Shown: piece by piece, positions 1,611-31,242 of the stretch
How the letters are laid out: every line of letters begins with the position of its first letter
Position numbering within the stretch: the first letter of the stretch is position 1
From: an uncultured Oscillospiraceae bacterium
Lineage (GTDB): Bacteria > Bacillota > Clostridia > Oscillospirales > Oscillospiraceae
Assembly: GCA_944385535.1 (NCBI GenBank)
Contig: CALWXR010000022.1
Span: 1-43,310, forward strand
Reading direction: 5' to 3'
DNA length: 43,310 nt
Program-made: the position numbers and the translations under genes
Notes under the pieces: model-generated
Database searches by the model: none
What the model was told of the DNA's origin: nothing
Seen by the model: the letters and a program-made list of their open reading frames with translations, nothing else

Positions 1611-1973
1611 TTATAGTTCCAAATCTTCTTCATCTTCGCTTTCTTCGCCGTACCCAAAATCCAACTCGTCCGATTCAAAAGAAAAGCTGTGGTCTGAGAT
1701 GCAGTCCAGGGCATCGCTGGCGTCCAGCTCGTCAAAATGCTCTCGGAAGAAAGCCAAATCCTCCTCGTCAGCGCGCACGGTTTCGCCATCTCCATAGAGA
1801 TAGGTCTGAATTTTCGCTTCGATGGTATCCCCCAGGGGCCATTCGGCAAGAACCTCAGAGATTTCATCACAGTCCAGCAGTTCATCCAGCCCATCAGGGC
1901 TACCGGGGACAAAATGCTCCGTCATCAGAGAGTGGGGGACATCCAGAGTCACCACCGAAAACATTTTGCTCAT
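1611..1973 (-). CDS. Small acidic hypothetical protein with DLEL tail
   Basis: A 120-residue, strongly acidic protein without a recognised family. The start at 1973 has GGAGG 7 bases upstream and overlaps the stop of the DUF3846 gene by 4 bases (ATGA), so the two are translationally coupled. The last 15 residues are almost all acidic and end DEEDLEL, the same type of C-terminal tail seen on at least six other accessory proteins of this element. It is the final gene before the operon terminator. Function unknown; a role after transfer or in anti-defence is only inferred from the company it keeps. Confidence 0.8.
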   Translation of the reverse strand: MSKMFSVVTLDVPHSLMTEHFVPGSPDGLDELLDCDEISEVLAEWPLGDTIEAKIQTYLYGDGETVRADEEDLAFFREHFDELDASDALDCISDHSFSFESDELDFGYGEESEDEEDLEL

Positions 1974-2407
1974 CGGCTTGCCTCCATTTCCTCTCCGGCT
2001 CCGGTGTCCATGTCCCATCCCTTGCCGAACATGAGGTTCATAAACTCTTTCATGTCGGCGGCGGACCGTACTTCAAAGGATACCGCTGCGGGGACCGGCT
2101 GCGGAAAATACTCCTGATACATGGCAATCTGTTCATCGGTCAAAGAAACGCCCCGTCCTTCCGGGGTATCGCCATAGAGGAAAAAAGTTCCGTGAAGGAT
2201 ATCCGGCCCGTACTGTCGGTTCTCCGGCAGACCTGTCAGTTTCCCGGACGCATTGCAGCAGAGAACCGTTTCGCAGGGCAGAGGAATACACTCAATATCC
2301 CCGCCCACAAGTTCCTGCCGGTGTTCCAGAGAATCCTCCAGCATGGTCGTATAAGGCGCCCGTCCAGGTTCAAACACCATAATCCGAATCGTTCTGTTGT
2401 CGTTCAT
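1970..2407 (-). CDS. DUF3846 domain protein
   Basis: A 145-residue cytosolic protein. The pattern IRIMVFEPGRAPY, then a VGGDIECIPLP segment, CCNASGKL, LPENR and a late SLTDEQIAMYQEYF matches DUF3846, a small domain common on Bacillota mobile elements and phages whose biochemical role is unknown. The start at 2407 is preferred over 2413 because AAGGAGA then sits 7 bases upstream. The final residues (GEEMEASR) are a degenerate form of the acidic tail found on neighbouring genes. It lies 17 bases downstream of the large exported protein gene and overlaps the next gene by 4 bases. Confidence 0.8.
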   Translation of the reverse strand: MNDNRTIRIMVFEPGRAPYTTMLEDSLEHRQELVGGDIECIPLPCETVLCCNASGKLTGLPENRQYGPDILHGTFFLYGDTPEGRGVSLTDEQIAMYQEYFPQPVPAAVSFEVRSAADMKEFMNLMFGKGWDMDTGAGEEMEASR

Positions 2408-2424
2408 ATCCATTCTCCTTTTCT

Positions 2425-4122: not shown

Positions 4123-4153
4123 AAACGCACCTCCAATCAAATTAGTTGAGAAC

Positions 4154-4184
4154 AAAAAAAGAGTACGGTATCGCTACCGTACTC
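4154..4184 (-). terminator. Intrinsic terminator between the DUF6550-like gene and the exported protein gene
   Basis: A perfect 10-bp stem (GAGTACGGTA / TACCGTACTC, loop of 4) is followed on the minus strand by seven T. It sits between the stop of the DUF6550-like gene (4198) and the TTG start at 4122. No promoter fits in the remaining 30 bases, so the downstream genes depend on read-through. Confidence 0.85.
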
Positions 4185-4197
4185 TCCGGGCTTGTTA

Positions 4198-4743: not shown

Positions 4744-4802
4744 TTGAAAACCTCCTTGTACGGTGATTTTATATTAAAATTATGGTGATATTTCTCGCCA
4801 TC

Positions 4803-4832: not shown

Positions 4833-4895
4833 GGTGTGATTCCTGCCAAATATTTTTTTGCGCTATGGAAAAGCGGCAGGGCGAAATACACAAAA

Positions 4896-5447
4896 TTAAA
4901 ACCTGGGAACATATTTGGCGTTGAGTTTCATGGTGATCTGCATGGGGGGCAGATGCCCAAACCCAAAGGAAAGCGGCACATCAACAGTGATTGTCCCTGT
5001 GACATTGAGCTGCGTAATGCCATCCGGCACAGACGGGGCCAGCGGAGCATTTTCTACATCCAGGTGCAGGTCGTACAGTCGATACTCCAAATTCTCGCCG
5101 CTGTACTTTACATACTGCCCGCCCTCGTATTCAATGCCCAAAACATCTTGCAGGCGGGCGTACACATTGCCGCTGGTAACATTCTGTGACCAGGACGAAC
5201 CCGCAAGCTGATAGCCGCCGGAGTAACCCTCCCGCAAACCGGCATAGGCTTCATCCCAATTCTCGGTGGCCACATCCACAATGGCGGACTGGACGGAATC
5301 GCGCACCCCCTGTGCAACGATCATCAGTCGCATATACTCAAAGGTCACACAGGCCAGAATCAGGCAGCAGAGGACAACGGCCAAAATCATCGGTACGCCT
5401 TGCCCGGAATTGTTTTTCAGGACTTCTCGAATCTTCTTCACTTCCAA
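4896..5447 (-). CDS. tadE: TadE-like minor pseudopilin
   Basis: A 183-residue envelope protein with a short basic N-terminus, the motif SGQGVPMI and a hydrophobic helix (about residues 19-40) continuing into an extracytoplasmic domain. That is the TadE/TadF pseudopilin plan: prepilin peptidase cuts after the Gly before the helix, and the product caps or primes the Flp pilus. The start is the TTG at 5447 (GGAGG 4 bases upstream) or the GTG at 5441 (10 bases); it overlaps the TadF-like gene by up to 10 bases. Last gene of the contiguous Tad block. Family assignment rests on topology and context, so another pseudopilin name is possible. Confidence 0.7.
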   Translation of the reverse strand: MEVKKIREVLKNNSGQGVPMILAVVLCCLILACVTFEYMRLMIVAQGVRDSVQSAIVDVATENWDEAYAGLREGYSGGYQLAGSSWSQNVTSGNVYARLQDVLGIEYEGGQYVKYSGENLEYRLYDLHLDVENAPLAPSVPDGITQLNVTGTITVDVPLSFGFGHLPPMQITMKLNAKYVPRF

Positions 5448-5833: not shown

Positions 5834-5849
5834 GGTTTCTCCACCTCCT

Positions 5850-7171: not shown

Positions 7172-7198
7172 TCTCGATGGTATCACCTCCTGACGAGA

Positions 7199-11111: not shown

Positions 11112-11129
11112 GTTGATACCTCCATTTGT

Positions 11130-13864: not shown

Positions 13865-14347
13865 TCACAGTTCTGCCGTCATATCCTCGTCAAGCTCATC
13901 CTGCTCGATTTCATTCATGTGGTTGGTTTCTTCCTGTTCGTTCTCAAGCTCCATCAGCTTCACAAAGACGGCGTTAACAACGCACGGATCAATCTCCGTG
14001 ACATATCGGGTGGTCGGGTCTACCTGATGTGCCTCCCTCGGCTCTCTTGTGTCAGGGAAGTCCGTTTTGCCCGCTCGGTCAAGCACGGCCTGATCGAACC
14101 GTGCGTCCCAATCGGAAAACTGGATAGTACGGGACAGCACATACATCGCCCGTTCTGTTCCATAACAGCGCACCAATTCTTCGATAAAGGCGTCCAGTTC
14201 ACGGGTATTGAAGGCAGTCATGGCCTTATCCTGAATGAAGTTGCGGCAGGACATATTGATGTTGTAGCTGTCACACCAGAGAGCCGCTTCATCCTTTCGG
14301 GCGGCTTCCTCCAGCGAGGGATAGTAGACCGGAATGGTTGCGTACAT
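13865..14347 (-). CDS. DUF3849-like protein
   Basis: A 160-residue soluble protein. The pattern YATIPVYYPSLEEAARKDE, then NINMSCRNFIQDK, LVRCYGTERAMYVLSRTIQFSDWDARFD matches DUF3849, a mobile-element domain of unknown function. The C-terminus is acidic and ends DEDMTAEL, a relaxed version of the acidic E-L tail shared by other accessory proteins here. The start overlaps the PrgI stop by one base (TAATG), and its stop overlaps the GTG option of the methyltransferase. It is therefore translated as part of the T4SS-methyltransferase string. Confidence 0.7.
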   Translation of the reverse strand: MYATIPVYYPSLEEAARKDEAALWCDSYNINMSCRNFIQDKAMTAFNTRELDAFIEELVRCYGTERAMYVLSRTIQFSDWDARFDQAVLDRAGKTDFPDTREPREAHQVDPTTRYVTEIDPCVVNAVFVKLMELENEQEETNHMNEIEQDELDEDMTAEL

Positions 14348-16872: not shown

Positions 16873-18438
16873 TTAATCATCATCAAGGCCACCGCCCATA
16901 GCGCCCTTTTGCTGCGAAAGGCGGCGCATGATGTCCTTCTGGTAGTAAATCCAGATGTTCCACAATGCGATTTCCTGTTTCGTGTCGGTGATGATTGGCC
17001 GTTTCTGTTCCCGTTCTTCCCGCAGCCTGCGGTTATGCTCCATGTCACCCAACCCCAACATCTTGTTGAACATCCACTGAGAAAGGTCGGGCGCATACAT
17101 CATAGCGGGGTGGTCGCGGCTGGTGATGATTTGGTGGGGACGCTTGACGCGCCGGACCTCATCGGTATTGAGCAGCTTTCTCTCGGTCAGACTGACGCTC
17201 TGGGAGTTAGAGGGGGTTGTGTATTTGCCGTTACTGGCCGAAAGCTGGTAACTGGATGTGGTGTAGCTGCCGAGTTTGTCGGACATCTCCCGCAGCGTTT
17301 CCGGGTCATCACTTTGCAGGTATGCCCACACCTGACAGTTGCCTTTGATCGTGTTGGCGATATTGTCGCTGTACTTTTCTTTCAGTTGGTCAAAGCCCTG
17401 CACAAACAGCGCATATCGCATCCCACGGCCAGCCGCCACGGTCAGTTTGTTGGTCATGTCACTGATGGGAGTAAAGTTGCCATACTCGTCAAGGATGAAG
17501 TTGACACGGCGTTCCAGGCGCCCGCCGCGCCGGTCTGCCGCCTCTGCCAAAAGTTCATATTGCTGCGACACAATAAGAGAAGCGATGGGATAGAAGGTGG
17601 TTTTCTCATCCGGCAGAATTACAAACAACGCCTGCTTCTTGCTGCCCATATCTGTAAGGGTAAAATCGCTGGTATGGGTGATAGCGTAGATGGACTTCGA
17701 GGTGAACAGCCGCAAGGTGGTCAGGGCAGAGGTGTAGAAGCTGCCTCTGGTACGGGACGGCGCCACATCGGAAATGGACAGAAGCGCCCGTGCCGGGTGG
17801 GATGGAGAGAGCTTCTTGACATACTCCAACAGCGGCATCTTATTTCCGATGGTACGGCACATTTCCGAAATGAACCAATACACATTGGTCATGTTCTGAA
17901 ATTCCGGTCGTTTTTGGTTGTCGCACACCACGCAAAGAATGGCAGCCGCTATGATGGAACATTCACCGTTCGTCCAAATCTTTTCGCCCTCCGGCTTACC
18001 AACCAGATTATTCGTCAAGTCCCAAGCCAGCATTTCTGCACGGTCGGTGTCGCCCTCGTTGATGGCATCAATAATAGGTTGGAGCAGATTGTAACGCATA
18101 CTCTTTTCGGGGTTCTTGAAGTCCAGCACCAAAACCTGATAACCCAACTTTTTCAGGAAATCAGCGGTGTAGTGGAACAATTCGGCTTTGGGGTCAGAGC
18201 AGAAGATGGATTCTCCGGCGAGTCCCAAAAGACAGATACTTTCCAGAACCAGACATCTTGATTTACCAGAACGAGTGGCGCCAACGCAGAGCAGGTGGCA
18301 GTCATCACCGACAAAATAGATTTTTTCTTTATCGCCCTCCTTTCGCATACCTACCACCACGCCGCCTTTTTTCAGCGGAGTATCCGCTCCCAAAGGTTCC
18401 TGCTTGGGAATACCTTTGGGGTGAAGGTTCAACTTCAA
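16873..18438 (-). CDS. VirD4/TraG coupling protein, ATPase part
   Basis: A 521-residue coupling-protein ATPase that would bring the relaxosome and protein substrates to the channel. Walker A GATRSGKS is at residues 53-60 and Walker B FILDEYGNF at 314-322; the conserved ALFVQGFDQL and RPHQIIT segments follow. It lacks the N-terminal membrane helices of normal VirD4, which are encoded by the gene just upstream (18451-18900). The start is the TTG at 18438; GGAGG lies 7 bases upstream and overlaps the stop region of the upstream gene (TAAGGAGG). It starts directly at the nucleotide-binding domain, so the pair looks like a naturally split VirD4. Confidence 0.92.
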   Translation of the reverse strand: MKLNLHPKGIPKQEPLGADTPLKKGGVVVGMRKEGDKEKIYFVGDDCHLLCVGATRSGKSRCLVLESICLLGLAGESIFCSDPKAELFHYTADFLKKLGYQVLVLDFKNPEKSMRYNLLQPIIDAINEGDTDRAEMLAWDLTNNLVGKPEGEKIWTNGECSIIAAAILCVVCDNQKRPEFQNMTNVYWFISEMCRTIGNKMPLLEYVKKLSPSHPARALLSISDVAPSRTRGSFYTSALTTLRLFTSKSIYAITHTSDFTLTDMGSKKQALFVILPDEKTTFYPIASLIVSQQYELLAEAADRRGGRLERRVNFILDEYGNFTPISDMTNKLTVAAGRGMRYALFVQGFDQLKEKYSDNIANTIKGNCQVWAYLQSDDPETLREMSDKLGSYTTSSYQLSASNGKYTTPSNSQSVSLTERKLLNTDEVRRVKRPHQIITSRDHPAMMYAPDLSQWMFNKMLGLGDMEHNRRLREEREQKRPIITDTKQEIALWNIWIYYQKDIMRRLSQQKGAMGGGLDDD

Positions 18439-18450: not shown

Positions 18451-18900
18451 TTATTTTTCTTTGAGAAAATCCAAACCATCGTATCCGGTATCTAAGAGCT
18501 GCCGGATCGTTGGGTTGTGCGGGTCAAGAATATAGCTGTCAAATGCTTTGTCTTTCTCGGAATCGGTCATCCACCGGGCTGAACCATGCTGGTATTGGCC
18601 CACGGCTCTGGGTGTCTGAATTTCCGGGGTGATCGTGTCCAGGTCTGATTCATACGGCCTCATGTTGGTCAGGAAGAACATAACCGCCAACACACTTACA
18701 AACCCTTGCAGACACAGATACAACATCATGTGCTGGCGGTTGGAAAATAGGCTGGCAAGGCAGTCCCCGATGGGGAGAAGTGAAAGCCGGGTGATCTCTC
18801 TTGTCAGCAGACCGTGAACCGCTGTTGAGAAAAACAGGTTGAGAATCGCGCCGGAAACGAAGATCAGCGCACAAACCATCAATTTAGGCTTTGTTTTCAT
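18451..18900 (-). CDS. VirD4 N-terminal membrane part (split coupling protein)
   Basis: A 149-residue protein with helices at about 7-29 and 60-79 and a cytoplasmic tail containing QYQHGSARWMTDSEKDKAFD. The GSARWxT segment is the one that immediately precedes the ATPase domain in full-length VirD4 proteins of this class, so this is the missing membrane half of the coupling protein. The two genes are separated by 12 bases with a good internal ribosome binding site, not by a simple frameshift: the tail continues 35 residues past the motif to its own stop. The ATG overlaps the stop of the preceding gene by 4 bases. Confidence 0.8.
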   Translation of the reverse strand: MKTKPKLMVCALIFVSGAILNLFFSTAVHGLLTREITRLSLLPIGDCLASLFSNRQHMMLYLCLQGFVSVLAVMFFLTNMRPYESDLDTITPEIQTPRAVGQYQHGSARWMTDSEKDKAFDSYILDPHNPTIRQLLDTGYDGLDFLKEK

Positions 18901-19946
18901 AATTCCATATCATCCTCAACAGCAAAATCATCCAGAAACGCTTCATTGTCTTGATCCTCGGTCAGCTTGATTGCCTGCGGCTCCGTTTCGCCCATCTGCA
19001 TGGGAATCAGGACCGGCAATAGATGCTTTTGCAAAAAGTCCTGATCCTCGCAGCGGTCAATGAATGTCCCGAAGGTGTTCAAAAACGGGGTATCCAACGG
19101 AGTACAAATCATCAGGTCGCCGCGCTCTTTCCCCATCTTCACAATAAAAGATGCAAGATTGACCGGATCGGGGTCCAGGCAGAACGCTTCATGCAGACCG
19201 CCCTCCGCAGGGGCATACCCGATTAGAAAAGGATAGCCGCAAGCAGTATGGTTTTGCTTGGCTGCGCTGATAAGTTCAGGGGTGACAAACTTGGTGAGTT
19301 CTTCAGCAGCCTTATTTCTGACCGGCTTATCCAGAAGCCATTCTTTCAAACTTTCCGGCTTGACGATGCCACAGAAGTCATGTCGTTCCCAATGAATGTA
19401 TTTACCGGTCAACAGACTTTCTGCATACACGGCCTGACCTCTGGCTCCATAAATACATCCATAACCGTCACGGGCATACCAGATGGAGTCGTCGGCAGTC
19501 ATATCCTCACCCTTGCTGCTTACCCCAGGCTTGAGAACCAGAAATTGATTTTCGTAGTTGTACTGGTTACTGTCAGGGATGCAGTCATTGATGTCCAGAG
19601 GGCGATCCGACTGGCGGATCATTTTCTGATTCTTCACCATAGCGTCGGATACATAGAGAATCGGGAGTTGCAGAAAAGTAGCCAGACCGATTTCGTCCTT
19701 CATTCCCTGAGAGATGGTGTCGCCCATAACCCAGAGTTCATCGCAGCGTTCCAGCAGTTCGTGACCCATTCGCAGACCCTGTTCCCGCTGCTCCGGCACC
19801 GCATCATTCAGATATTGCGTGAAAATCGTATGCGGCGCCAAGGGAATCACGCCGCAGGATGCCGCATAAGCACAGTAGTCCTTTGCCTTTTCCTTGTTCT
19901 TTTCCATATCTCCCCGCAGAGGGGAAGAAATATAGACCAGCCTCAA
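18897..19946 (-). CDS. DUF4406/DUF7768-type nucleoside deoxyribosyltransferase-like protein with DMEL tail
   Basis: A 349-residue soluble protein. The first 105 residues (LVYISSPLRGDMEKN, then APHTIFTQYLND, a central GHELLERCDELWVMGD, SQGMKDEIGLA) are the nucleoside 2-deoxyribosyltransferase-like fold seen in DUF4406/DUF7768. The second part (IWYARDGYGCIYG, IHWERHDFCGIV) is not recognised. The C-terminus is acidic and ends VEDDMEL, the shared tail. The TTG start at 19946 follows AGGTAGGTG. It precedes and overlaps the VirD4 membrane half by 4 bases, so a potential effector is translated next to its coupling protein. The enzyme activity is unproven. Confidence 0.75.
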   Translation of the reverse strand: MRLVYISSPLRGDMEKNKEKAKDYCAYAASCGVIPLAPHTIFTQYLNDAVPEQREQGLRMGHELLERCDELWVMGDTISQGMKDEIGLATFLQLPILYVSDAMVKNQKMIRQSDRPLDINDCIPDSNQYNYENQFLVLKPGVSSKGEDMTADDSIWYARDGYGCIYGARGQAVYAESLLTGKYIHWERHDFCGIVKPESLKEWLLDKPVRNKAAEELTKFVTPELISAAKQNHTACGYPFLIGYAPAEGGLHEAFCLDPDPVNLASFIVKMGKERGDLMICTPLDTPFLNTFGTFIDRCEDQDFLQKHLLPVLIPMQMGETEPQAIKLTEDQDNEAFLDDFAVEDDMEL

Positions 19947-19954: not shown

Positions 19955-20059
19955 CTACCTTTCCAAATTAAGCCCATCCACCCAACAGATGGACGGTGCA
20001 AAAGTCAATGAAAACTGCCCACCGGCGACGGGACAAAGCCCCAAATCTCTGAGTTTCAA
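19955..20059 (-). CDS. Candidate 34-residue peptide with GLNLER end
   Basis: A 34-codon ORF starting at a TTG that overlaps the stop of the preceding gene (ATTTGA). The product is KLRDLGLCPVAGGQFSLTF, then APSICWVDGLNLER. It fills nearly all of the 109-base gap before the next gene. Its last residues, DGLNLER, match DGLDLER at the end of the 122-residue protein at 20680, which supports it being real. No strong ribosome binding site; translational coupling would be needed. Confidence 0.45.
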   Translation of the reverse strand: MKLRDLGLCPVAGGQFSLTFAPSICWVDGLNLER

Positions 20060-20670
20060 ATTTCCAGATCTTCCTCGTCCTCTAAATCACAGGTGCTTTC
20101 CGCATCGGAACCGTAATCTGTGAACGGCAAAATGTGTTCTGTGCCGTTCTCAACATTTTCCTCGGATTCATAAAGGCCCATATCGGCAAATTCATTATCG
20201 GAAACAAGAGTACCGTCAACGGTACGGAACATCAGCGGCATATAGTTACTGTCCTCGTAATACAGAAACTCATTGGTCGCATAGGCCAGTCTTGCAATGT
20301 CGCCGTCGTGAAAAATGAAATATGGAATCGTTCGTTCCCCGCTGATAGCCGGATACTTTTTGAGTTCATCAAAAAATTCTTGAAGTTCAGGGCAGATATA
20401 ATGCACGGTCAGCTTACCGGTTTCATTGCGGGAAATTCGTCCGATCACATCTTTCAACGCATGATCGGCAGTTAGTTGATAGCCAGCCCAAGCAACGGCT
20501 GTAATTTGGAACGGCGAAACAGCGCCGTCCGTTTCCTTATAAACCTGCGTGTTATCAAAGTCGAACCGGAGCCATTGACACTCCATATCATCATCCGCCT
20601 CTTGGCGCGGCGAAATGTCTGCTTCGATGATGAAGTGACTTCCTTCCAGGTCGAAGTCCAGGATTTTCAT
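20056..20670 (-). CDS. Acidic hypothetical protein with DLEI tail
   Basis: A 204-residue soluble protein, no family recognised. It has a beta-rich start (MKILDFDLEGSHFIIEADI), a central HYICPELQEFFDELKKYP and a long acidic C-terminus ending EDEEDLEI. That end is one of the clearest examples of the common acidic tail; here the last residue is Ile (ATT) and the stop TGA, while other tails use Leu or Val codons and TAA. ATG start with GGAG 7 bases upstream. It forms an unbroken string with the neighbouring small genes between the coupling-protein genes and the ATPase cassette. Confidence 0.8.
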   Translation of the reverse strand: MKILDFDLEGSHFIIEADISPRQEADDDMECQWLRFDFDNTQVYKETDGAVSPFQITAVAWAGYQLTADHALKDVIGRISRNETGKLTVHYICPELQEFFDELKKYPAISGERTIPYFIFHDGDIARLAYATNEFLYYEDSNYMPLMFRTVDGTLVSDNEFADMGLYESEENVENGTEHILPFTDYGSDAESTCDLEDEEDLEI

Positions 20671-20679: not shown

Positions 20680-21048
20680 CTATCTTTCCAAGTCCAGCCC
20701 GTCCAGCTCATAGTCTGAAACAGGCGGTTCAAAGGCCGTATCATAGGCCACATCATCGAGCTGCCGGATTGCGTCCAGACGGGCCACCGCCTGCGGATCG
20801 GTGACAAGTTCCTGTTCCAGCAGGGCGTCCGCAACGATAGCGTTGGAAACCGGGTCAGTAAAACAAAGGCTTTCACCGTCCTGTGCAGCCTGTTCCACCA
20901 CAGATTCCGGCAGAATTTCCTCGGCAACAGCCTTCGGCACTTCCAGCCCACGTTTCTTTGTGCCGACAATCTCATAAATGCCCACGGCAATCTCCCCGCA
21001 GGTGATGATATTTCCCCAAATATCGGGATTCGGGCGTCCATCACGCAT
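20680..21048 (-). CDS. Hypothetical protein with GLDLER tail
   Basis: A 122-residue soluble protein with an Ile/Gly-rich start (PDIWGNIITCGEIAVGIYEIVG) and a helical acidic rest; no family recognised. The start at 21048 is preferred to 21072 because GGAGG then lies 7 bases upstream, and it overlaps the previous gene by 8 bases. The C-terminus SDYELDGLDLER is a basic-ended variant of the tails on its neighbours and closely resembles the end of the 34-residue peptide just downstream. Role unknown. Confidence 0.75.
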   Translation of the reverse strand: MRDGRPNPDIWGNIITCGEIAVGIYEIVGTKKRGLEVPKAVAEEILPESVVEQAAQDGESLCFTDPVSNAIVADALLEQELVTDPQAVARLDAIRQLDDVAYDTAFEPPVSDYELDGLDLER

Positions 21049-21325
21049 ACTTTGTCCCTCCATCTTCCTCATAAGGCATATAGGCTATGACGGTGAGGTA
21101 ATCCGTACCCAGGCGCCGCAAAAGAGCATCCTGATGTTCCATGACTTGATCGACGATATGCTCCGGGCAGTATTTCATCAGGTCAGCTACATATTGCCCC
21201 ACCTCCAAGCCAATGGGATGCGCCAGGTATTCTTCGTCCGTCATGCCCTCAAGCTGCTGGTTCAGCCCGTATTTATACATCAGGAAACGGGCGATAGCGA
21301 TGGTCTGATTCCTCTTGCTGCTCAT
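21041..21325 (-). CDS. Hypothetical protein (94 aa)
   Basis: A 94-residue soluble, mostly helical protein (MSSKRNQTIAIARFLMYKYG, then LEVGQYVADLMKYCPEHIVDQVMEHQDALLRRLG). ATG start with GGAGG upstream, 5 bases after the stop of the 227-residue gene; it overlaps the next gene by 8 bases. It carries no acidic tail and no motif I recognise. Operon membership is its only functional clue. Confidence 0.75.
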   Translation of the reverse strand: MSSKRNQTIAIARFLMYKYGLNQQLEGMTDEEYLAHPIGLEVGQYVADLMKYCPEHIVDQVMEHQDALLRRLGTDYLTVIAYMPYEEDGGTKYA

Positions 21326-23942: not shown

Positions 23943-25178
23943 TCACGGTTCTATACCTTTGTCCTTATGCCGCAGATACCACTCTTTTCGGGCCGCCTTT
24001 GACAGTTCGGTACTCATGGCCTTTTGCCGGTCGTCGTATTCCATGTCAAAACTCATAGCAGTCTGCTCCAGCGCTATTAGAATTTCGCAAATCATCTGTT
24101 CGGTGAAGTAGGCTTTCCGGGCCTCTGTATATTCAAAAGACTGGACCTCATGGTCTTTGCACAGCATGGTGCGGATCACATCGAGAATTTTATTGGCGAT
24201 CAGCTTATCGGCCTCTGCCACAGCCTTTTCCTGCTGTTCTTTGATGTGGGTCGGGTCGGTGTCATAGAGCATGGCAAGGCGGGTTTTGCTCTCCACATAG
24301 TCCTGAACCAGATTGCGGATGTACTCGTTGTTTTCTTTCAGGAAGGCAACAAAGGCATCCACTTCGACCTTCACATCCTCTGGCAGCAATTTGTAATACA
24401 GCCGTCCCTTTTTCGGCATTTTCTCCTTCAGCGCGAACAGGCGTGAGAGAAAGGGGGCAATCTTCATTGCACCAACAACGCTATCCAAGGGGGAAGTCCC
24501 CAGCTCATCATCCGTGATACGCCCAAACGCTTCACGCAGGCGGCGATATTCCTGCGGGTGAAGATGCTCCATGTACTTCTCAAACTCGTCAATCATTTCG
24601 TCTGTGATGGCCGACAGGTGTTCCTTTGCCTGCTGTTTGGCCTCGCAATACTCTTTGATACGCTCGGCAAAGGTATCTCGAATGAGTTGTTTTCGGATTT
24701 TATCCGGGATGCTTGGATGGACAAAAGGGACCATTGTTCGCTGATGTTTATTCCAGAACACCACATGGATGTGGGGATGACCTTTTTCGTTATGGTGGGC
24801 AGCCACCCATTGCAAGTCCTGCACCCGGATTCCATTGAACTTTGCCAGGGTCAAAATGTGGCGGTCGATATAGTCCTCCCACGCTTTGTGATCGGACAGC
24901 CCCAATTCGGCGGCCGTTTCAGGTGAAAAAGAGATAATACCACGATACATATTGACCCGACGATAGGAAAGCTCCCGAACCAGGCGGGCGGCTTCCTGCC
25001 AGGTGTCAAACTCTTTGACCGCCCCCGGCTCCAGCTTACCGAACAGCCCGTGGCGCATCCCCTCATTTTTCACGGCACCGGGACGAGTTGCAATGTAACC
25101 GATATGTGCATAGTTGCCTTTCGGTGTTTTCTTATAGTTGGGGTGCCGGTGGCGCTGCTTATAAATCAGAATCGACAC
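23943..25178 (-). CDS. MOBP-type relaxase
   Basis: A 411-residue relaxase that would nick oriT and pilot the strand to the recipient. The three-His metal motif is HHNEKGHPHIHVVFW (128-142). The N-terminus (SILIYKQRHRHPNY) followed by NYAHIGYIATRPG, then GLFGKL, is the pattern of the MobP3-like family of Clostridia. The C-terminal half is helical and charged. The GTG start at 25178 is chosen because AAGGAGG lies 5 bases upstream; the frame is open to 25364 but overlaps the upstream gene heavily. True overlap with the ribbon-helix-helix gene is 20 bases. The candidate oriT is only 0.5 kb away. Confidence 0.88.
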   Translation of the reverse strand: MSILIYKQRHRHPNYKKTPKGNYAHIGYIATRPGAVKNEGMRHGLFGKLEPGAVKEFDTWQEAARLVRELSYRRVNMYRGIISFSPETAAELGLSDHKAWEDYIDRHILTLAKFNGIRVQDLQWVAAHHNEKGHPHIHVVFWNKHQRTMVPFVHPSIPDKIRKQLIRDTFAERIKEYCEAKQQAKEHLSAITDEMIDEFEKYMEHLHPQEYRRLREAFGRITDDELGTSPLDSVVGAMKIAPFLSRLFALKEKMPKKGRLYYKLLPEDVKVEVDAFVAFLKENNEYIRNLVQDYVESKTRLAMLYDTDPTHIKEQQEKAVAEADKLIANKILDVIRTMLCKDHEVQSFEYTEARKAYFTEQMICEILIALEQTAMSFDMEYDDRQKAMSTELSKAARKEWYLRHKDKGIEP

Positions 25179-25641
25179 GGGAACCTCCTTGTACGGCATG
25201 GATGGCTTTCTGCATTTCCTCGTCATCCATGAAAGTACGCAGCGCATCCGCGTTTTTCTGATTGGCAAATGCCAATGCCCGCTTTCGGGCCGCCGACTCA
25301 ATTTTTTCAAAAGACGAATAGCGATCTTGGTCAATGAGGTCTGCGATAATGGCAATGTTGGCATAATAGCCCGCAGCCGATATGATCGTCAGGCGGTTTA
25401 TCAGTCCGGCCAACCGATTTCCCAGGGCTTTGAGCTGCCCGCTGAGTTCCTGCCGGATGACCCCGTTTATCATGTCAATATTTTCGGCGGTGGTTTCCAA
25501 ATCCAGATATTCGTCAATCGCCCTGCGCACTTCTTTGGAAAAGTCCGTCCCGTTCCTGGCCGCCAGCTTATTGAGCGCCCGAATGGTATCCTCCGGCAGA
25601 TGGAGCGTCTTGCGCTCTGTTTTTATGGGCGATTCCTTCAA
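25159..25641 (-). CDS. Ribbon-helix-helix relaxosome accessory protein (MobC-like)
   Basis: A 160-residue DNA-binding protein. The N-terminal ribbon-helix-helix (ERKTLHLPEDTIRALNKLAARNGTDFSKEVRRAIDEYL, about 9-46) is followed by a helical region that could dimerise. Its place between the hairpin-rich non-coding region and the relaxase is that of a MobC-type protein that binds oriT and recruits the relaxase. The TTG start at 25641 has GGGAGG 7 bases upstream. The long overlap with the relaxase gene implies coupled translation and fixed stoichiometry. Confidence 0.82.
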   Translation of the reverse strand: MKESPIKTERKTLHLPEDTIRALNKLAARNGTDFSKEVRRAIDEYLDLETTAENIDMINGVIRQELSGQLKALGNRLAGLINRLTIISAAGYYANIAIIADLIDQDRYSSFEKIESAARKRALAFANQKNADALRTFMDDEEMQKAIHAVQGGSRVDSDL

Positions 25642-25982: not shown

Positions 25983-26879
25983 TCACAGTTCAAAGTCATC
26001 TTCCAGATCTTCTTGGGCGGGCGCCCACTCGGTAAAAATCTCCGCCATGATTTCGTCCTTTGTTCCTCGGACAGAGCAGCCCTCATTGGCGTAGTCCTCC
26101 AGATTGGAGAGCCGTTCAGGGATACGGTAGAACGCAAACTGCCGTCCCGGTGTCTGAATGAACAGCCGCATTTCATACCCGTCCTTCGGGTTCATTGCGT
26201 CCATCAGTTCATCCAGGGTTCCAACCCGTTCGCAGGCTTCCCGCAGGATGGAGTGCAGCATATCTTTGGGGATCTCCGCAGACCAGAGAGAGTAATCGTC
26301 TTTCCCGTGACAGGTGATGGTCTGGACTTTTGCAAAGGCAATCCGGTCGATCTTCTCCAGCGCAGAGTTCAAAATTGCCTCGGCCTCCGGCGGATGGTGG
26401 CCGCAGAGTTCCATATCCACCACAGTCCCCACGGCTTCCGCCTCTTGTTCGGTCAGAACGATGTCCACTTTTTTCTGTTCATAGGTATTTCCACGGCCAT
26501 TGAGCATCAGGGAACATTCGGCAGCAATGCGGAACATCCTGTAATAGTCGTCCGCAGTTTCTCCCAATGTCTTGCCGGTGGCAAAGTTTTGAAAATAGCG
26601 CTTGCCGTCTTTGTCGCGGCAGGCCAGGGAAATGTCCAGATAGATACCTTCGCTGGCCCCAAAATTGGGAATACAGAGCGCCTGGTCAAACTCAGGCAGT
26701 TCGCCCGTCAGTTCATCGAAGAACAGGAAATACTCATCCGGGAGCAGACCTTTCAGTTCCAGGTGCGTTTGCAGTCTGTCAAAGGTTTCTTTTGCGTCGG
26801 CCATGCCGATGTGCCGGACACGCCGCTTTTCATCCGGCTCACTCCAGCGATCCAATTGAAAGGTTTTGATTTTTGCCAA
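25983..26879 (-). CDS. Hypothetical protein with DFEL tail
   Basis: A 298-residue soluble protein of unknown family. It begins MAKIKTFQLDRWSEPDEKRR, has a central domain (YFLFFDELTGELPEFDQ, GIYLDISLACRDKDGKRYFQ) and ends in an acidic stretch finishing LEDDFEL, another copy of the common tail (Leu coded CTG, stop TGA). The TTG start at 26879 has GGAGG 7 bases upstream and follows the Toprim gene by 2 bases. It is the last gene before oriT, a position often held by leading- or lagging-region proteins. No catalytic motif identified. Confidence 0.78.
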   Translation of the reverse strand: MAKIKTFQLDRWSEPDEKRRVRHIGMADAKETFDRLQTHLELKGLLPDEYFLFFDELTGELPEFDQALCIPNFGASEGIYLDISLACRDKDGKRYFQNFATGKTLGETADDYYRMFRIAAECSLMLNGRGNTYEQKKVDIVLTEQEAEAVGTVVDMELCGHHPPEAEAILNSALEKIDRIAFAKVQTITCHGKDDYSLWSAEIPKDMLHSILREACERVGTLDELMDAMNPKDGYEMRLFIQTPGRQFAFYRIPERLSNLEDYANEGCSVRGTKDEIMAEIFTEWAPAQEDLEDDFEL

Positions 26880-26881: not shown

Positions 26882-27940
26882 TTACACCTCCATACCTTGT
26901 TCCGGTTCTTCCTCGGCGCTCTGTTCAAATGCAGTTTCCAGCTCCGCCATACGCTGACGGTCTAAATCCTCCACAGAACGCCCCTTCCGCATTTCCACCA
27001 GGTCGGTGTTAAAGTCATTCAAATGCGGCACATGAACCGCGCAGGCATATCCCTTTTCGGTGTATGCCTTCATCCATTTTGCCGCTGTAAGCTGCCCCCA
27101 ATTTCGCAGTTGCCCATTCTTATCACGGGCCAGATAGTCATTGTCCACTGCAAACACCAGCCGCTTGATCTGCGGATGGCCTTCCAGATAACGGTCAATG
27201 GCTCCATTCCAAAGGCAACCGGTAGAGATACGGTGATCTTGCATCCAGTCACGCCCATAAAAGTCAGCGGCAATAGAAGCATGGCTCATCAGGTCGATGG
27301 GCGCCTCGGTGACAATCAGCAGATCGGTTTTGCCCTCGTGGAAGAAGGGGTAGCTTTTATCTGAGCCGGTCGCATCCATTTTGAAGGAGCTGTTATCTCT
27401 GGCCGCCCGCATGGAGCAATACCGGGCTGTTCCTTCTGTATCGTAGCCTACAAACACGCAGTTGCCATACTTTTTTTCCTGATAAATCATCTTCCGATTC
27501 ATAAAGTGGCTTACGATTTTGGGGCTGATACCTCGGACAGAAACCAGATACCAATAGGCCCGCTTCATGTTGTCTGCCTTTTCAGGCAGCACCAGCGGCT
27601 CCCGTTCTTTTTTCTCATAGGGAACCACCTGCTTTACGGATGGAGAGAACTCCTTGCCGATCAGCTTGCCCACCGCTTCGGGGAAGGACAGGTTTTCTTC
27701 CCGCATGACAAAATCAATGGCGCCGCCTTTGACTCCATCATCAGGACCCGTCCATTGGAAAAAGCGATTGTTTTCGGGGAAGATGTAAAGCCCGCCGCTG
27801 TGCTTCATGTGGACAGCTTTGCGGCCTGCCTTTTCCGGCTCATATCCATAGCCACGGGCCAGGGACAGAATATCCACGCTGTTTGCTTTCCGAATCTCAT
27901 CCTCGGTAAATTTCTGATACGCAGCGGCGCTTCTGCTCAT
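26882..27940 (-). CDS. DUF3991/Toprim primase-like protein
   Basis: A 352-residue protein. The N-terminal part has a CHC2-like fold without the zinc cysteines (SVDILSLARGYGYEP, HSGGLYIFPENNRFFQWT, GAIDFVMREENLSFPEAVGKLIG). A DUF3991 region follows (RAYWYLVSVRGISPKIVSHFMNR), then a Toprim-type core (LLIVTEAPIDLMSHA near 207-221 and KRLVFAVDNDY near 257-267). Such proteins are thought to prime or process the transferred strand; activity is not shown here. The C-terminus (EEEPEQGMEV) is a Val-ended version of the common tail, so this could be a protein sent with the DNA. ATG start with GAGGTG upstream. Confidence 0.82.
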   Translation of the reverse strand: MSRSAAAYQKFTEDEIRKANSVDILSLARGYGYEPEKAGRKAVHMKHSGGLYIFPENNRFFQWTGPDDGVKGGAIDFVMREENLSFPEAVGKLIGKEFSPSVKQVVPYEKKEREPLVLPEKADNMKRAYWYLVSVRGISPKIVSHFMNRKMIYQEKKYGNCVFVGYDTEGTARYCSMRAARDNSSFKMDATGSDKSYPFFHEGKTDLLIVTEAPIDLMSHASIAADFYGRDWMQDHRISTGCLWNGAIDRYLEGHPQIKRLVFAVDNDYLARDKNGQLRNWGQLTAAKWMKAYTEKGYACAVHVPHLNDFNTDLVEMRKGRSVEDLDRQRMAELETAFEQSAEEEPEQGMEV

Positions 27941-27951
27941 ATCACATCACC

Positions 27952-28542
27952 TCACAATTCCAAATCAGGCTCCTGTTCTTCGCTGCTCTCAATCACAGGC
28001 TCCTGAGTCATATCCTGATGAAAATGGTCAACGCCCGGAATAAGCGCCAGCGAAGAACCATTCTCCCAATGGCAATGAATTTGCCCCAGATCGTCAACGG
28101 AATCCACGATGCCGGTCAGTCCCGCAGGCATTTCATGGTAGGGATCTTCCATCTTTTCATCCAGAACAACCTTGGTTCCGGGCTGGTAGTTCTGCCGGAT
28201 GAGCTTTGCCTGCTCGTACTGATATTCAGGCGATCTGGTGGGCGCTTTCTTTTCTCCCGGTTGGATCGGGATGCCCTCTGCATCGTAACAGGCAGGATCG
28301 ACAGCAGGAACATTCCAGCCAAACATGGAACCGGCCAACATAGCTGCCGCCTGTGCCTTTGATATACCCTCATGGGCATTGAACTGATTTGCCAGAACCT
28401 TGTTATACTCACGGTCGCTGGTGGAATAAGCGCAGGGATAGTAGCCCTTTTCGCCGCGCCTGACCTCTATGAGCTGCCCGGAGCCGGGAAGAACCGCATA
28501 GCAATGTTCCGGCAGAGCAGCAGGATTAAAGTTCTTCGCCAT
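27952..28542 (-). CDS. DUF4314 domain protein with DLEL tail
   Basis: A 196-residue soluble protein. The first 90 residues (HCYAVLPGSGQLIEVRRGEKGYYPC, AHEGISKAQAAAMLAGSMFGW) are a conserved mobile-element segment that I cannot name. Residues about 115-180 (NYQPGTKVVLDEKMEDPYHEMPAGLTGIVDSVDDLGQIHCHWENGSSLALIPGVD) are DUF4314, an SH3-like small domain. The end SSEEQEPDLEL is the common acidic tail (Leu coded TTG). The start at 28542 has GGAGG 6 bases upstream; the open frame extends further without a site. It overlaps the previous gene by 17 bases. Function unknown. Confidence 0.82.
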   Translation of the reverse strand: MAKNFNPAALPEHCYAVLPGSGQLIEVRRGEKGYYPCAYSTSDREYNKVLANQFNAHEGISKAQAAAMLAGSMFGWNVPAVDPACYDAEGIPIQPGEKKAPTRSPEYQYEQAKLIRQNYQPGTKVVLDEKMEDPYHEMPAGLTGIVDSVDDLGQIHCHWENGSSLALIPGVDHFHQDMTQEPVIESSEEQEPDLEL

Positions 28543-29113
28543 AGTCAGCCTCCACTTCGTACTCCGCAGAGTCCGCCGCTTCGTCCTCATAGAACTCATC
28601 CAGGTCAAATCCGGTTTTTCCGATTTCCTCGTTGCTCATGCCGAGTTCATCTCTCAAATGGCGATATAAGTCCCATCCGACATAGTTCTGTGCTGCCCAG
28701 GACAGCGCCTTATCCAGAATCAAACGGGCGCGATCTTCGCCCAGGCTCTCCAGAGAACCATTGCGGATGGCATTGAACTCATGGTCGGACAGGTTCAGCA
28801 ACCGATATGCTTTCTCAAGCTGCGGCTCCTTTGCACAGTCCGGGAGCATCAGATTTTCCGTCTGCTCCACAAAGCCATAGTCCAGATTGCTATACTGAAC
28901 ATCACCGGTACGGCAGGCCGCCCGGAACTGTTCAAAGCCCTTCATATTGCTGAAGCCCCGGTAGTCCATTGTGCCGCCGAGGATTTGGGCGCCGATGATG
29001 GTATGCAGCATTTCTTCATCCGTAGTGGCCGCCACGATTCGCATGGAACTTCGCTCCTTGCTCAAAGTGCAGCCATACAGGATGAAAACATTCGCTGTGT
29101 TATCAAGGCTCAC
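28526..29113 (-). CDS. Hypothetical protein with acidic EEL end
   Basis: A 195-residue soluble protein. After an N-terminal ANVFILYGCTLSKERSSMRIVAATT segment it has two helical blocks (EMLHTIIGAQILGG, AYRLLNLSDHEFNAIRNGSLESLGEDRARLILDKALSWAAQNYVGWDLYRHLRDELGMSNEEIG). The last part is acidic and ends EADYGEEL. No family recognised. The GTG start at 29113 has GGAGGG 8 bases upstream and overlaps the preceding gene by 11 bases; an ATG at residue 24 with AAGGAG is the alternative. Confidence 0.75.
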   Translation of the reverse strand: MSLDNTANVFILYGCTLSKERSSMRIVAATTDEEMLHTIIGAQILGGTMDYRGFSNMKGFEQFRAACRTGDVQYSNLDYGFVEQTENLMLPDCAKEPQLEKAYRLLNLSDHEFNAIRNGSLESLGEDRARLILDKALSWAAQNYVGWDLYRHLRDELGMSNEEIGKTGFDLDEFYEDEAADSAEYEVEADYGEEL

Positions 29114-29993
29114 AGTCTAATCCCTCCGTTTCTTCCTGCAATCGCTCCAAATACTCGTCGATGTCCGGTTCCTCATACTGAAATTGGAGCGATTCAACGA
29201 TTGCCGGGTTACAGTCCTTCGGCAGATAATCCTTAATATCATTTTGAACATCACGGATTTCCCCCAGAAATCCCCAGCAGCTATCCACTTCCACATCTTC
29301 TTTGAAAAGCTGGAACCCATAACACTGTCCGGTAAGGTAGTAGTCGTACTCCTTGACTTCGGATTCCAGAACTTGACGAACTTTTTCCAATATTTCAGGG
29401 GTGATTTTCCCATATTCCCGTTCGATCATCTCTTTATCTGCGTAAATCCAGCCAACCTGACCGGAATCCCACGGGCAGGAAAAGCCGCAGGTGTTCATGG
29501 TGATCCCGCTGTGATCGTACAGGTAAAGCGGAAGAATCACCATGCCATCCATTTGTTCTACCAGCGAAAGCAGTTCACCGGTTGAGAGGGCAGAAAGGCA
29601 GTCATCCAAAAACCAGTCCGGGACTTCATCTTTCAATGAGGCCGCATAGCTGGAGGACACATACCAATCGCTGTTTGAATGCCAGTGCTGGTTCTCCTGC
29701 AATTCCCACTCCCGTGTGGATCGGTTGTATTCCAGACGGGCATCCTTGGCTTTGCCGGATTTGAGAAATGCGAAAACCGGATTGTTGCGGTCGTGGCCGC
29801 TGGAGTATTCAGAAAACAGCAGGCTCCGCAGGAAATCGCTCGGCTCGTCATAATCGTGCTTCTCGCCCAGACTGTATCTGCTGTGCCAGCAGACCATTTT
29901 TCCCAAACAGTCATAGTCCTCACGAGGGTTCAGAGGGGTATCATCATCCAGAATGAAAAGGGTGTAGGGCGCCATTGTCGCTGTCATCGGCAT
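29103..29993 (-). CDS. Hypothetical accessory protein (296 aa)
   Basis: A 296-residue soluble protein rich in Tyr, Trp and acidic residues (TLFILDDDTPLNPREDYDCLGKMVCWHSRYSLG, DWFLDDCLSALSTGELLSLVEQMDGMVILPLYLYDHSGITMNT, WDSGQVGWIYADKEMI, YYLTGQCYGFQLF). I know this arrangement from unnamed phage and ICE proteins but cannot attach a function. The tail (ETEGLDCEP) is acidic but lacks the E-L end. ATG start with GGAGG 9 bases upstream, 34 bases after the 31-residue peptide gene. Confidence 0.78.
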   Translation of the reverse strand: MPMTATMAPYTLFILDDDTPLNPREDYDCLGKMVCWHSRYSLGEKHDYDEPSDFLRSLLFSEYSSGHDRNNPVFAFLKSGKAKDARLEYNRSTREWELQENQHWHSNSDWYVSSSYAASLKDEVPDWFLDDCLSALSTGELLSLVEQMDGMVILPLYLYDHSGITMNTCGFSCPWDSGQVGWIYADKEMIEREYGKITPEILEKVRQVLESEVKEYDYYLTGQCYGFQLFKEDVEVDSCWGFLGEIRDVQNDIKDYLPKDCNPAIVESLQFQYEEPDIDEYLERLQEETEGLDCEP

Positions 29994-30027
29994 ATCGCTT
30001 CACCTCCTTCCAGACAGGTCGGTTTGC

Positions 30028-30123
30028 TTAGTTGGCGCCGTGGCGGTTACGATACCAGCCAAAATAGAAAAGGCCGCCAATCATGGCGGCGGCAGCGGAT
30101 ACGCTCAAAATTGCTTTTTTCAT
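30028..30123 (-). CDS. Tiny membrane peptide (31 aa)
   Basis: A 31-codon ORF: MKKAILSVSAAAAMIGG, then LFYFGWYRNRHGAN. AAAGGAG lies 6 bases upstream of the ATG. It accounts for most of the gap between the 364- and 296-residue genes. The basic start, one Ala/Gly-rich hydrophobic helix and basic end suggest a single-pass inner-membrane peptide, like the one at 12305-12397; a short lipid-inserting toxin or regulator cannot be excluded. Confidence 0.6.
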   Translation of the reverse strand: MKKAILSVSAAAAMIGGLFYFGWYRNRHGAN

Positions 30124-30147
30124 ATTGGCTCCTTTCAAAAACCAGAT

Positions 30148-31242
30148 TTATAGTTCCATATCCTGTTCTTCCTCACAGTCCAACACAGGGGTGTCCGGCG
30201 GGGATTCCCCGTGTTCTTCAAACTGCTGTCGGGTCTGAATCGCAGCGGACAGTTTGGCAAGCAGGTCAAACATTTTGGTGCTGTCCCGGCTGCCTTTGAA
30301 ATAGCGGTAGTTCCATTCTCCAATTTGGGGATCGTACCGGATACTGTGAAGCGAATTGATGATCCAGCCCTGTGTTTTGAGAGGAACAGGAATTTCATGC
30401 TCACGAAAGAGCTGCATAATGAGAGATTTGCCGTTGATCTCCCGGTTTATCACCTCCTTTCCCGCCATAATATTTCCTTCGGCCTCACGGATGGCGGAAT
30501 CGTAACGGGCCTGTCGTTCTTGTGCCAACTGCTGTTCACGGGCGTCTTGCTGCGCCCGTCTTTCATCAGCTTGCCGTTGCCGCTCCGCAGCAATGGGGGC
30601 ATTGTGGGCTTTTGCTTCCTCATACCGTCCAAGCAGATTGGCAAATCCCAGATCAGCCCACCGGTCCGGGGCTTCCATACTCTGATTGAAAACCCTTTCG
30701 ATCTCACCCCGGATGCCATGCTCCAGAGTGGGCAGCCATTTCAGGACTTCCTCAAGTCGGTGCCGCTGGTCAATGCCCACCATAAACCCGTCGCATGGAA
30801 TATAAACCGTTTGGAAGAACTCCCGTTTCTTCTCCGTTGTGTAGAGTTCAATGCCGTTTTCGTTGTAGAAGCGGTAGTAGAAGTGCTTGTTTCCCATCAG
30901 GTCTTTGGCAAAAACCCGGTTCTCGTCTTTTTCCTTTGGCGGGAAGATGTCCTTTTTCTTTTCATCCGGTCGGGTATAGCGGGGAGAAAGACCGGTACGC
31001 TCCAAGCTACTGTTAATCACTTGCTGAACCTTTTCTATTCCGCCGTGGCTCTTGATAAAAAGTGCAAGATATTCCGCATCCCGCGCTGGGCAGAGATGCA
31101 GTCCGGTTTTGCCTTCATAAACAGCCCCTTTATACTGAAAGAGGTCAAGGCCAAAGTCATTCCGCAGCGGTTTCGTTTCCTGAACGGGTGTAAAAGCCCC
31201 CTCACGGAAGATATAGCAGACAGCCGAATGTTTCTCGCCCAT
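30148..31242 (-). CDS. Hypothetical coiled-coil protein with DMEL tail
   Basis: A 364-residue soluble protein. The first 160 residues form an alpha/beta region (SAVCYIFREGAFTPVQETKPLRNDFGLDLFQYKGAVYEGKTGLHLCP); then comes an Arg/Gln/Glu-rich coiled coil (AAERQRQADERRAQQDAREQQLAQERQAR, about 220-250) and a helical domain (LFREHEIPVPLKTQGWIINSLHSI). The C-terminus CEEEQDMEL carries the common acidic tail (Leu coded CTA, stop TAA). ATG start with GAGGTGG 8 bases upstream. No family recognised; charged coiled coils are frequent in polyvalent mobile-element proteins. Confidence 0.78.
   Translation of the reverse strand: MGEKHSAVCYIFREGAFTPVQETKPLRNDFGLDLFQYKGAVYEGKTGLHLCPARDAEYLALFIKSHGGIEKVQQVINSSLERTGLSPRYTRPDEKKKDIFPPKEKDENRVFAKDLMGNKHFYYRFYNENGIELYTTEKKREFFQTVYIPCDGFMVGIDQRHRLEEVLKWLPTLEHGIRGEIERVFNQSMEAPDRWADLGFANLLGRYEEAKAHNAPIAAERQRQADERRAQQDAREQQLAQERQARYDSAIREAEGNIMAGKEVINREINGKSLIMQLFREHEIPVPLKTQGWIINSLHSIRYDPQIGEWNYRYFKGSRDSTKMFDLLAKLSAAIQTRQQFEEHGESPPDTPVLDCEEEQDMEL

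What the first reader, a model, noticed from the sequence alone, without database searches (positions are those of the whole stretch)
1611..31242. A shared acidic C-terminal tail ([DEG]-[LMF]-E-[LIV]) on many unrelated accessory proteins
Seen: proteins at 1611 (EDLEL), 18897 (DDMEL), 20056 (EDLEI), 25983 (DDFEL), 26882 (QGMEV), 27952 (PDLEL) and 30148 (QDMEL) end in the same motif after a Glu/Asp-rich stretch; 21331 (EEMEIGG), 28526 (GEEL) and 13865 (TAEL) are looser versions. The proteins have different folds. The codons of the last residue differ (CTA, TTA, ATT, CTG, GTG, TTG) and stops vary between TAA and TGA, which argues for selection on the peptide. Inference: a common sorting signal, most simply a coupling-protein secretion signal that co-delivers these proteins into the recipient, or a docking/degradation tag.
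Basis: partly seen in the sequence, partly recalled or inferred. Interest (0 to 1): 0.86.

Follow-up and report, generated by a model that had tools for sequence, protein, structure and literature searches.

The report
Element-wide C-terminal tags on ICE cargo
Many unrelated soluble proteins of this conjugative element end in the same short acidic tail, and related elements with different transfer motors carry a different shared tail, which looks like an address label for proteins sent along with the DNA into the recipient cell.

Summary
The tails are real: 7 of 45 called window genes end in [DEG][LMF]E[LIV], against 2 of 356 genes sampled from the same genome and 0.06-0.12 expected from shuffled tails. 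Codons and stops vary, and the proteins are unrelated by sequence. In relatives, similar acidic phi-E-phi tails end relaxases, an ArdA, RadC, DUF3991-TOPRIM, DUF3848, ParB and giant SNF2/methylase proteins, and almost no membrane-like proteins (77 of 469 against 1 of 177). In four shared gene families, elements with the window's VirD4 coupling-protein clade have acidic tails (15 acidic, 1 K-type, 28 unclassified); elements with the other clade have basic tails ending in R or E-x-L/I (0 acidic, 19 R/K, 8 unclassified). One mobilisation relaxase family ends in QDMEL (3), R (11) or K (1) of 15. Best explanation: an element-wide C-terminal substrate signal read by the coupling protein; binding and transfer are untested. 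Against it: some clade elements are nearly tail-free (L073, L079), L345 has acidic tails with another coupling-protein lineage, G325 has a QDMEL relaxase without the matching coupling protein, and most clade relaxases lack a clean tip. Eight literature searches showed no description.

The parts
1611..2018 (-). 135-aa protein, no Pfam hit, tail EDEEDLEL
   Evidence: tail intact in the Gemmiger sp. An50 copy (L307:2782-3084) although the protein is only 81% identical over 99 aa
11573..12292 (-). DUF3848 protein, P-variant tail WVGDMEP
   Evidence: other DUF3848 proteins end EDMEM (L078) and IDLDI (L076); falls in one BLAST family with 13865
13865..14347 (-). DUF3849 protein, loose tail EDMTAEL
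16873..18438 (-). VirD4-type coupling protein (T4CP), the proposed reader of the tails; itself untailed (ends GGGLDDD)
   Evidence: Pfam T4SS-DNA_transf 2.7e-55; trees; predicted helical stretch about residues 118-253 (low confidence)
18897..19946 (-). DUF7768 (deoxyribosyltransferase-like) protein, tail VEDDMEL
   Evidence: 96% identical with the same tail in An50
20056..20670 (-). 204-aa protein, tail DEEDLEI
20680..21072 (-). 130-aa protein, R-variant tail GLDLER
   Evidence: compare DEMER, DMDMER and DEWER tails in L302
21331..22014 (-). 227-aa protein, loose tail QQEEMEIGG
   Evidence: identical in An50
23943..25199 (-). MobL/MobA-type relaxase, near-motif tail DKGIEP
   Evidence: Pfam MobL 3e-9, Relaxase 1.2e-5; homologues end DKGMEP, DKGLEP, DKGVEP, DRGMEP
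25983..26879 (-). 298-aa protein, tail EDDFEL
   Evidence: acidic tail in 5 of 7 family members, the L102 and L103 ones end DELER and DELDR
26882..27940 (-). DUF3991 (TOPRIM-like) protein, tail PEQGMEV
   Evidence: family tails
27952..28542 (-). DUF4314 protein, tail QEPDLEL
   Evidence: acidic tail in 7 of 8 family members
28526..29113 (-). 195-aa protein, loose tail DYGEEL
   Evidence: 0 of 7 family members have the acidic class tail
29103..29993 (-). 296-aa protein, tail LDCEP; three relatives end EEMEV, DEMEM, EELEM
30148..31242 (-). 364-aa protein, tail EEQDMEL
   Evidence: DMEL kept in 8 of 8 family members while the preceding linker differs
31470..39911 (-). giant SNF2/methylase (polyvalent) protein; no tail here, but homologues end EDMEM, DIDMDM, GYER, KGKEESL

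Best explanation
The tail is an element-wide C-terminal substrate signal. An acidic, probably unstructured linker ends in an address tip, [DE]-phi-E-phi-COOH, that the element's own type IV coupling protein (VirD4) reads, probably through its helical substrate-binding domain. Soluble proteins bearing the tip would then be fed into the conjugation channel, alone or with the relaxase-DNA complex. The tagged set (relaxases, ArdA, RadC, TOPRIM-like protein, methylase-helicase and others) would help the incoming DNA survive and establish. Elements with other coupling proteins use other tips (basic ending in R; basic ending in E-x-L/I). Shown: the tail, its enrichment, its near-restriction to soluble proteins, and its co-variation with coupling-protein lineage. 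Inferred: disorder of the linker, coupling-protein binding, transfer, and function in the recipient.
For: Enrichment in the window. Tails on relaxases (L286 and L290 by Pfam, L287 by homology; L076 and L078 end GLSI and DLSM; 3 of 15 MobV ORFs end QDMEL), on ArdA-DUF3846, RadC, DUF3991, DUF3848 and giant proteins. Soluble 77 of 469 against membrane-like 1 of 177 in acidic-class elements, and 185 of 545 against 6 of 132 for R/K tails in the other class (membrane-like = a 19-residue hydropathy window over 1.7). Four shared families, by element cluster: 15 acidic, 1 K, 28 unclassified against 0 acidic, 19 R/K, 8 unclassified. The coupling proteins of the acidic class form one clade of 12 rows, those of R/K elements fall in another. 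Genomes with this coupling protein have 1.57 against 0.43 acidic-tail DNA matches per genome (14 against 277 genomes, permutation p 6e-5). L303, found afterwards by its coupling protein, has DEIEL, DDMEI and EEMEI ends. Net charge of the predicted helical domain averages -1.25 in 12 acidic-class and -10.1 in 15 R/K-class coupling proteins. A review says this domain recognises the cognate relaxosome and accessory proteins (PMC7434980, passages).
Against: No binding or transfer data. The 12-row clade includes L079 (0 of 17 called genes with an acidic tail) and L084 (1 of 27), and L073, whose genome holds the coupling protein, has 0 of 15. The window's relaxase and 10 of 14 acidic-class relaxase clusters have no classified tail, and the window's giant protein is untailed. 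L345 carries five acidic EF-ending tails with a coupling protein of another lineage whose domain charge is -6. L137 has R tails but a domain charge of +1. G325 has the QDMEL relaxase without the clade's coupling protein. Within DUF3991 the tail classes need only 3 changes on the tree, 2 being the least possible, so much of the correlation is shared inheritance. Of the 22 pattern hits in clade genomes, 10 lie within about 16 kb of the coupling-protein gene by the coordinates; four others that were fetched (in L292, L293, L297, L298) gave no tailed gene.
Confidence: 0.62

Rival explanations
1. The tail docks cargo to another element-encoded hub in the donor or in the new host (relaxosome, replication or partition complex, or the giant polyvalent protein), not to the coupling protein.
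For: The hub would also be element-specific and inherited with the coupling protein. ParB and TOPRIM-like proteins are among the tagged ones. Acidic tails occur where the coupling-protein lineage differs (L345).
Against: Mob_Pre relaxases outside this gene set (for example beside a recombinase-like ORF in L022) end in QDMEL or R; what they would share with the element is the transfer machinery (inference). No other conserved hub was identified or sought.
Confidence: 0.19
2. The tail is a degradation or adaptor-recognition tag read by host proteases or another host factor.
For: Short C-terminal tips with an exposed hydrophobic end are a usual form of such tags (recalled).
Against: The host holds three full coupling-protein genes; the window has acidic tails, while the stretches read around the C1 and C14 ones show no acidic tail and 9 R-ending genes of 57. 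The same families switch tail with element lineage. Tails are nearly absent from membrane-like proteins.
Confidence: 0.06
3. The tails are acidic SSB-tip-like ends that bind DNA-metabolism enzymes or keep proteins soluble, with no role in sorting.
For: Acidic linkers with a hydrophobic end resemble the SSB C-terminal tip (recalled), and several cargo proteins have DNA-related domains.
Against: The tip is phi-E-phi, without the Pro-Phe of SSB (recalled). The other element class has basic R tips on the same families. Relaxases and an ArdA are included.
Confidence: 0.07
4. Chance, composition or gene-end artefact (for example ribosome-binding sites overlapping stop codons, or shared descent of gene ends).
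For: Cargo proteins are acidic, genes are tightly packed, and element copies are related.
Against: Shuffles give 0.06-0.12. Last codons and stops vary, and AGG-TGA is not among the 12 commonest R-ending contexts listed for the basic-tail loci. The seven proteins are in seven BLAST families.
Confidence: 0.03

Closest known systems
C-terminal translocation signals of VirB/VirD4-type secretion substrates (Agrobacterium; F-plasmid 'conjutome')
   Same: Short C-terminal stretch on unrelated proteins. The F-plasmid study reports C-terminal or internal signals on translocated proteins, and says known C-terminal motifs are enriched in positive or hydrophobic residues (PMC11288057, abstract and passages).
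   Different: Here the tip is acidic and phi-E-phi, sits on many proteins of one Gram-positive element, and alternates with basic tips by coupling-protein lineage. The same paper says signals vary considerably even within one system.
Acidic C-terminal signals of Legionella Dot/Icm effectors (E-block; recalled)
   Same: Glu-rich end with a hydrophobic residue near position -3 (recalled).
   Different: Different secretion class and adaptor proteins. No Dot/Icm relatives were looked for here.
Polyvalent proteins of phages and conjugative elements (PMC5512222, passages)
   Same: The giant protein carries an LPD ('large polyvalent protein-associated') domain; such proteins are proposed there to be delivered with the DNA.
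   Different: In the passages returned (12 of 26 places) no common C-terminal tag is described; 'secretion signal' and 'coupling protein' occur 0 times in the held text.
Class II PDZ ligands, phi-x-phi-COOH (recalled)
   Same: Same spacing of two hydrophobic residues at the very end.
   Different: No PDZ partner was sought.

Membership tests
C-terminal T4SS/T4CP substrate signal | located at the extreme C-terminus of soluble proteins | tested here: met
C-terminal T4SS/T4CP substrate signal | shared by non-homologous proteins of one system | tested here: met
   non-homologous pairs within an element share positions -1, -2 and -4 more than pairs between elements (p 0.012, 0.015, 0.0005), position -3 not (p 0.54)
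C-terminal T4SS/T4CP substrate signal | present on relaxases, the obligatory substrates | tested here: inconclusive
   acidic tips on relaxases of L286, L287, L290 and L084 and on 3 of 15 MobV ORFs; R on 11 of 15 MobV ORFs; but the window relaxase ends DKGIEP and 10 of 14 acidic-class clusters have no classified tail
C-terminal T4SS/T4CP substrate signal | signal type matches the coupling-protein lineage | tested here: inconclusive
   15 acidic and 1 K against 0 acidic and 19 R/K in four families, but L345, G325 and tail-free L073 and L079 do not fit
C-terminal T4SS/T4CP substrate signal | binds the coupling protein and is required for transfer | not testable with these tools
   needs peptide binding and a reporter transfer assay
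Agrobacterium-type positively charged signal | net positive, arginine-rich end (recalled) | tested here: not met
   window tails are acidic; the R tails of the other element class resemble it
SSB acidic tip | acidic end closing in Pro-Phe (recalled) | tested here: not met
   the seven window tips close in E-L, E-I or E-V
ssrA-like degron | ends in small residues such as Ala-Ala (recalled) | tested here: not met
class II PDZ ligand | phi-x-phi-COOH and a PDZ partner (recalled) | not tested
   the pattern fits; no partner search was made

The most novel reading that the evidence does not exclude
Conjugative elements of Bacillota tag their soluble cargo with a C-terminal address label that evolves in concert across unrelated genes and matches the element's coupling protein. 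At least four label dialects exist: acidic phi-E-phi (with L, M, F, P or R endings by element), basic ending in xR, basic ending in E-x-L/I, and S-M-S-M. Reading the label from sequence alone would list the proteins each element injects, including toxins, antirestriction proteins and methylases, and which small mobilisable elements ride which machine.
Probability: 0.48. Interest if true: 0.92.

Novelty: new variant of a known kind. Interest (0 to 1): 0.8.

Why it matters
How Gram-positive conjugation systems choose protein substrates is little known: the 2025 T4SS review says that experimental evidence for relaxosome recruitment in Gram-positive systems is limited (passages of PMC12857230). 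A short tip shared by relaxases, antirestriction proteins and many unknown proteins would give a sequence rule for what is injected, and would make protein co-transfer by these gut conjugative elements directly testable. It would also suggest a role for several DUF families.

Tried and rejected
Rejected: ribosome-binding-site overlap as the source of R-ending tails (last R codons and stops vary). Rejected: composition (shuffles). NCBIfam scans of ten window proteins gave nothing; PHROGs gave hits for 3 of the same 10. A viral-contig scan with the DUF3991 protein found no relative; one with the coupling protein gave one locus. AlphaFold models of two coupling proteins were poor (mean pLDDT 40.6 and 51.2). 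I used only the secondary structure of the first to bound the helical domain (residues 118-262 were counted), with Walker motifs placed by weak alignments to TrwB; no fold search was made. The charge argument is weak: essentially one phylogenetic contrast, with exceptions (L137, L345). The tip-versus-linker identity profile is biased, because pairs were chosen for having tails. Two plasmids with more distant coupling proteins (39% and 33% identical) showed no acidic tail by my rule (L304, L305). The tail classes A, R and K were defined after seeing data, and their exact rules differ slightly. L302 met the expectation only as a variant (phi-E-R). Confidence was lowered from 0.64 to 0.62, and the novel case from 0.50 to 0.48, after one search showed the tail-free clade loci.

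Full report
Observation. The window is a whole contig (C22, 43,310 bases) of a 2.85-Mb Clostridia genome and holds much of a conjugative element. Seven of 45 called genes match [DEG][LMF]E[LIV]$, against 2 of 356 genes from 20 stretches of the same genome (Fisher p 4e-6). Shuffled tails give 0.06-0.12 on average and never seven in 5000; the internal rate predicts 0.03. Of 20 whole-genome pattern hits, 6 lie in the window. Two others are relaxase ends reading QDMEL: a Mob_Pre relaxase on C102 (Pfam) and a 93% identical partial copy at the edge of C54.

Which proteins carry it. The seven are in seven BLAST families. In relatives the same type of tail ends relaxases (L286 and L287 DEMEF, L290 TDFEL), ArdA-DUF3846 (L286, DEMEV), RadC (DDMEF, EELEL, FELEI), DUF3991-TOPRIM, DUF3848 (EDMEM, IDLDI), ParB (NEIEM), giant SNF2/methylase proteins (EDMEM, DIDMDM), and a ToxN and AAA pair (EDMEL, EDMEI). 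In elements assigned to the window's coupling-protein class, 77 of 469 soluble and 1 of 177 membrane-like proteins have an acidic tail. None of 17 coupling proteins of that class has one, though 2 end in R.

Conservation. In the nearly identical element of Gemmiger sp. An50 the seven tails are present (L098, L306, L307), including EEDLEL on a protein that is only 81% identical over 99 aa. For 30148, DMEL is kept in 8 of 8 family members while the linker changes, and the codon differences of the last four residues between window and L102 or L103 are synonymous. Some tips drift: DUF3991 orthologues end QEMEA, EEVEP or DEAEP.

Relatives with other tails. A scan of the species-genome collection with the giant protein core kept the best 80 of at least 523 loci. 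Of 78 loci with called genes, 14 hold all 31 strict acidic matches; looser acidic ends occur in a few others. Of the remaining 64 loci, 50 have two or more genes ending in a basic tail of the R or K class, 9 have one and 5 none; of the 14 acidic loci, 4 have two or more. Examples are NGDDRER, HKDLER, SDAR, KEQER, NEER, and KGKEESL, SKEECL, KSEREI. Over all fetched genes, acidic-class elements have 78 acidic, 40 R and 2 K tails of 646. The other class has 4, 151 and 40 of 677. Unassigned loci have 20, 88 and 13 of 751, and the host sample 8, 24 and 3 of 356. Element class was assigned from the coupling protein read on the locus, contig or genome, or by giant-protein cluster where it was not read, and near-copies are included in these totals.

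Coupling proteins. The acidic-class coupling proteins form one supported clade (11 rows, 12). Two of its rows come from elements with few or no tails (L079 0 of 17 genes, L084 1 of 27). R/K-tail coupling proteins fall in another clade, which also holds the unassigned L080; the SMSM type (L085, L090) forms a third. Collapsed to family by element cluster, four shared families give 15 acidic, 1 K and 28 unclassified against 0 acidic, 19 R/K and 8 unclassified. Genomes with the clade's coupling protein (14 of 291) have 1.57 matches of the [DE][DE][LMV]E-phi-stop DNA pattern against 0.43 in the rest (permutation p 6e-5, or 4e-4 without the own genome). By the coordinates, ten of those 22 matches lie within about 16 kb of the coupling-protein gene; four others that were fetched gave no tailed gene (L292, L293, L297, L298). 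Two elements found afterwards by their coupling proteins behaved as follows: L303 has DEIEL, DDMEI and EEMEI; L302 has DEMER, DMDMER, EEWER and DEWER, the same phi-E core with a new last residue on four proteins.

Relaxases. Homologues of the QDMEL Mob_Pre relaxase (16 places in 11 of 391 genomes; 15 ORFs read) end in QDMEL in 3, in R in 11 and in K in 1. Of 28 MobA/VirD2-type relaxases picked from the 30 loci returned (88 of 291 genomes had a match), 10 end in R (host 24 of 356, p 3e-5). Relaxases must pass the coupling protein, so two tail types in one relaxase family is what a coupling-protein signal would predict. Against this, the second QDMEL genome (G325) has only distant coupling proteins, and relaxases of the acidic class often end in less clear forms (DWEKES, GWDIEK, KGIEP).

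Mechanism. A predicted helical stretch lies between the nucleotide-binding motifs of the window coupling protein (helices from 118 to 253; low-confidence model; Walker motifs placed by TrwB). Net charge over residues 118-262 averages -1.25 in 12 acidic-class and -10.1 in 15 R/K-class coupling proteins, which fits charge matching with the tails. L137 (+1, R tails) and L345 (-6, acidic tails) do not fit well. A review credits this domain with recognising the cognate relaxosome and accessory proteins (PMC7434980, passages). I therefore favour direct reading by the coupling protein; an element-encoded adaptor remains possible.

Exception worth keeping. G232 (L345) has five proteins ending EIEF, EFEF, EMEF, ELEF and EFEF, including RadC and DUF3991-TOPRIM, with a coupling protein outside the clade. 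The acidic tail is thus not exclusive to one coupling-protein lineage; the element-wide sharing is the firmer fact.

Literature. Eight searches listed no paper whose title or abstract start describes an element-wide C-terminal tag in these elements; the library lacks most subscription papers and preprints. Papers were seen as listings, abstracts or passages only.

Noticed in passing
window 5438-11576; L304 29897-33991; L305 6376-8467: Tad/type II secretion-like pilus genes (named by comparison with the annotated plasmids and from recall) lie inside the conjugation operon. A similar arrangement is annotated on the Exiguobacterium plasmid pEYLC1.2 and partly on Sulfobacillus pY0017.
   Followed up: partly
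window 1-1600; L307 4805-6631; G000:C89:1718-3499: No VirB4-like gene was seen in the window. In the An50 copy a 608-aa ORF that I take for VirB4 (from size and position, not searched) lies beyond the 1611 orthologue, and the own genome has a VirB4 relative on contig C89, so the element probably continues past the contig end, near a transposase-like ORF at 199-1437.
   Followed up: partly
window 22464-23783; L306 999-2225: The AAA-ATPase-like ORF is replaced by a 408-aa ORF without a window match at the same place in the An50 copy, suggesting a cargo exchange site.
   Followed up: no
L288 8744-10353: A ToxN-type toxin gene and an AAA_28 gene both end in the acidic tail (EDMEL, EDMEI), so a toxin module may carry the same address.
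   Followed up: no
L302 134-4589: Four proteins end in phi-E-R (DEMER, DMDMER, EEWER, DEWER), a tip change shared across one element.
   Followed up: partly
L345 2262-18017: Five proteins end in E-phi-E-F type tips in an element with a different coupling-protein lineage.
   Followed up: partly
L086, L089, L090: Amidoligase and DUF6103 proteins end in S-M-S-M or T-M-S-M, possibly a further tail dialect.
   Followed up: no
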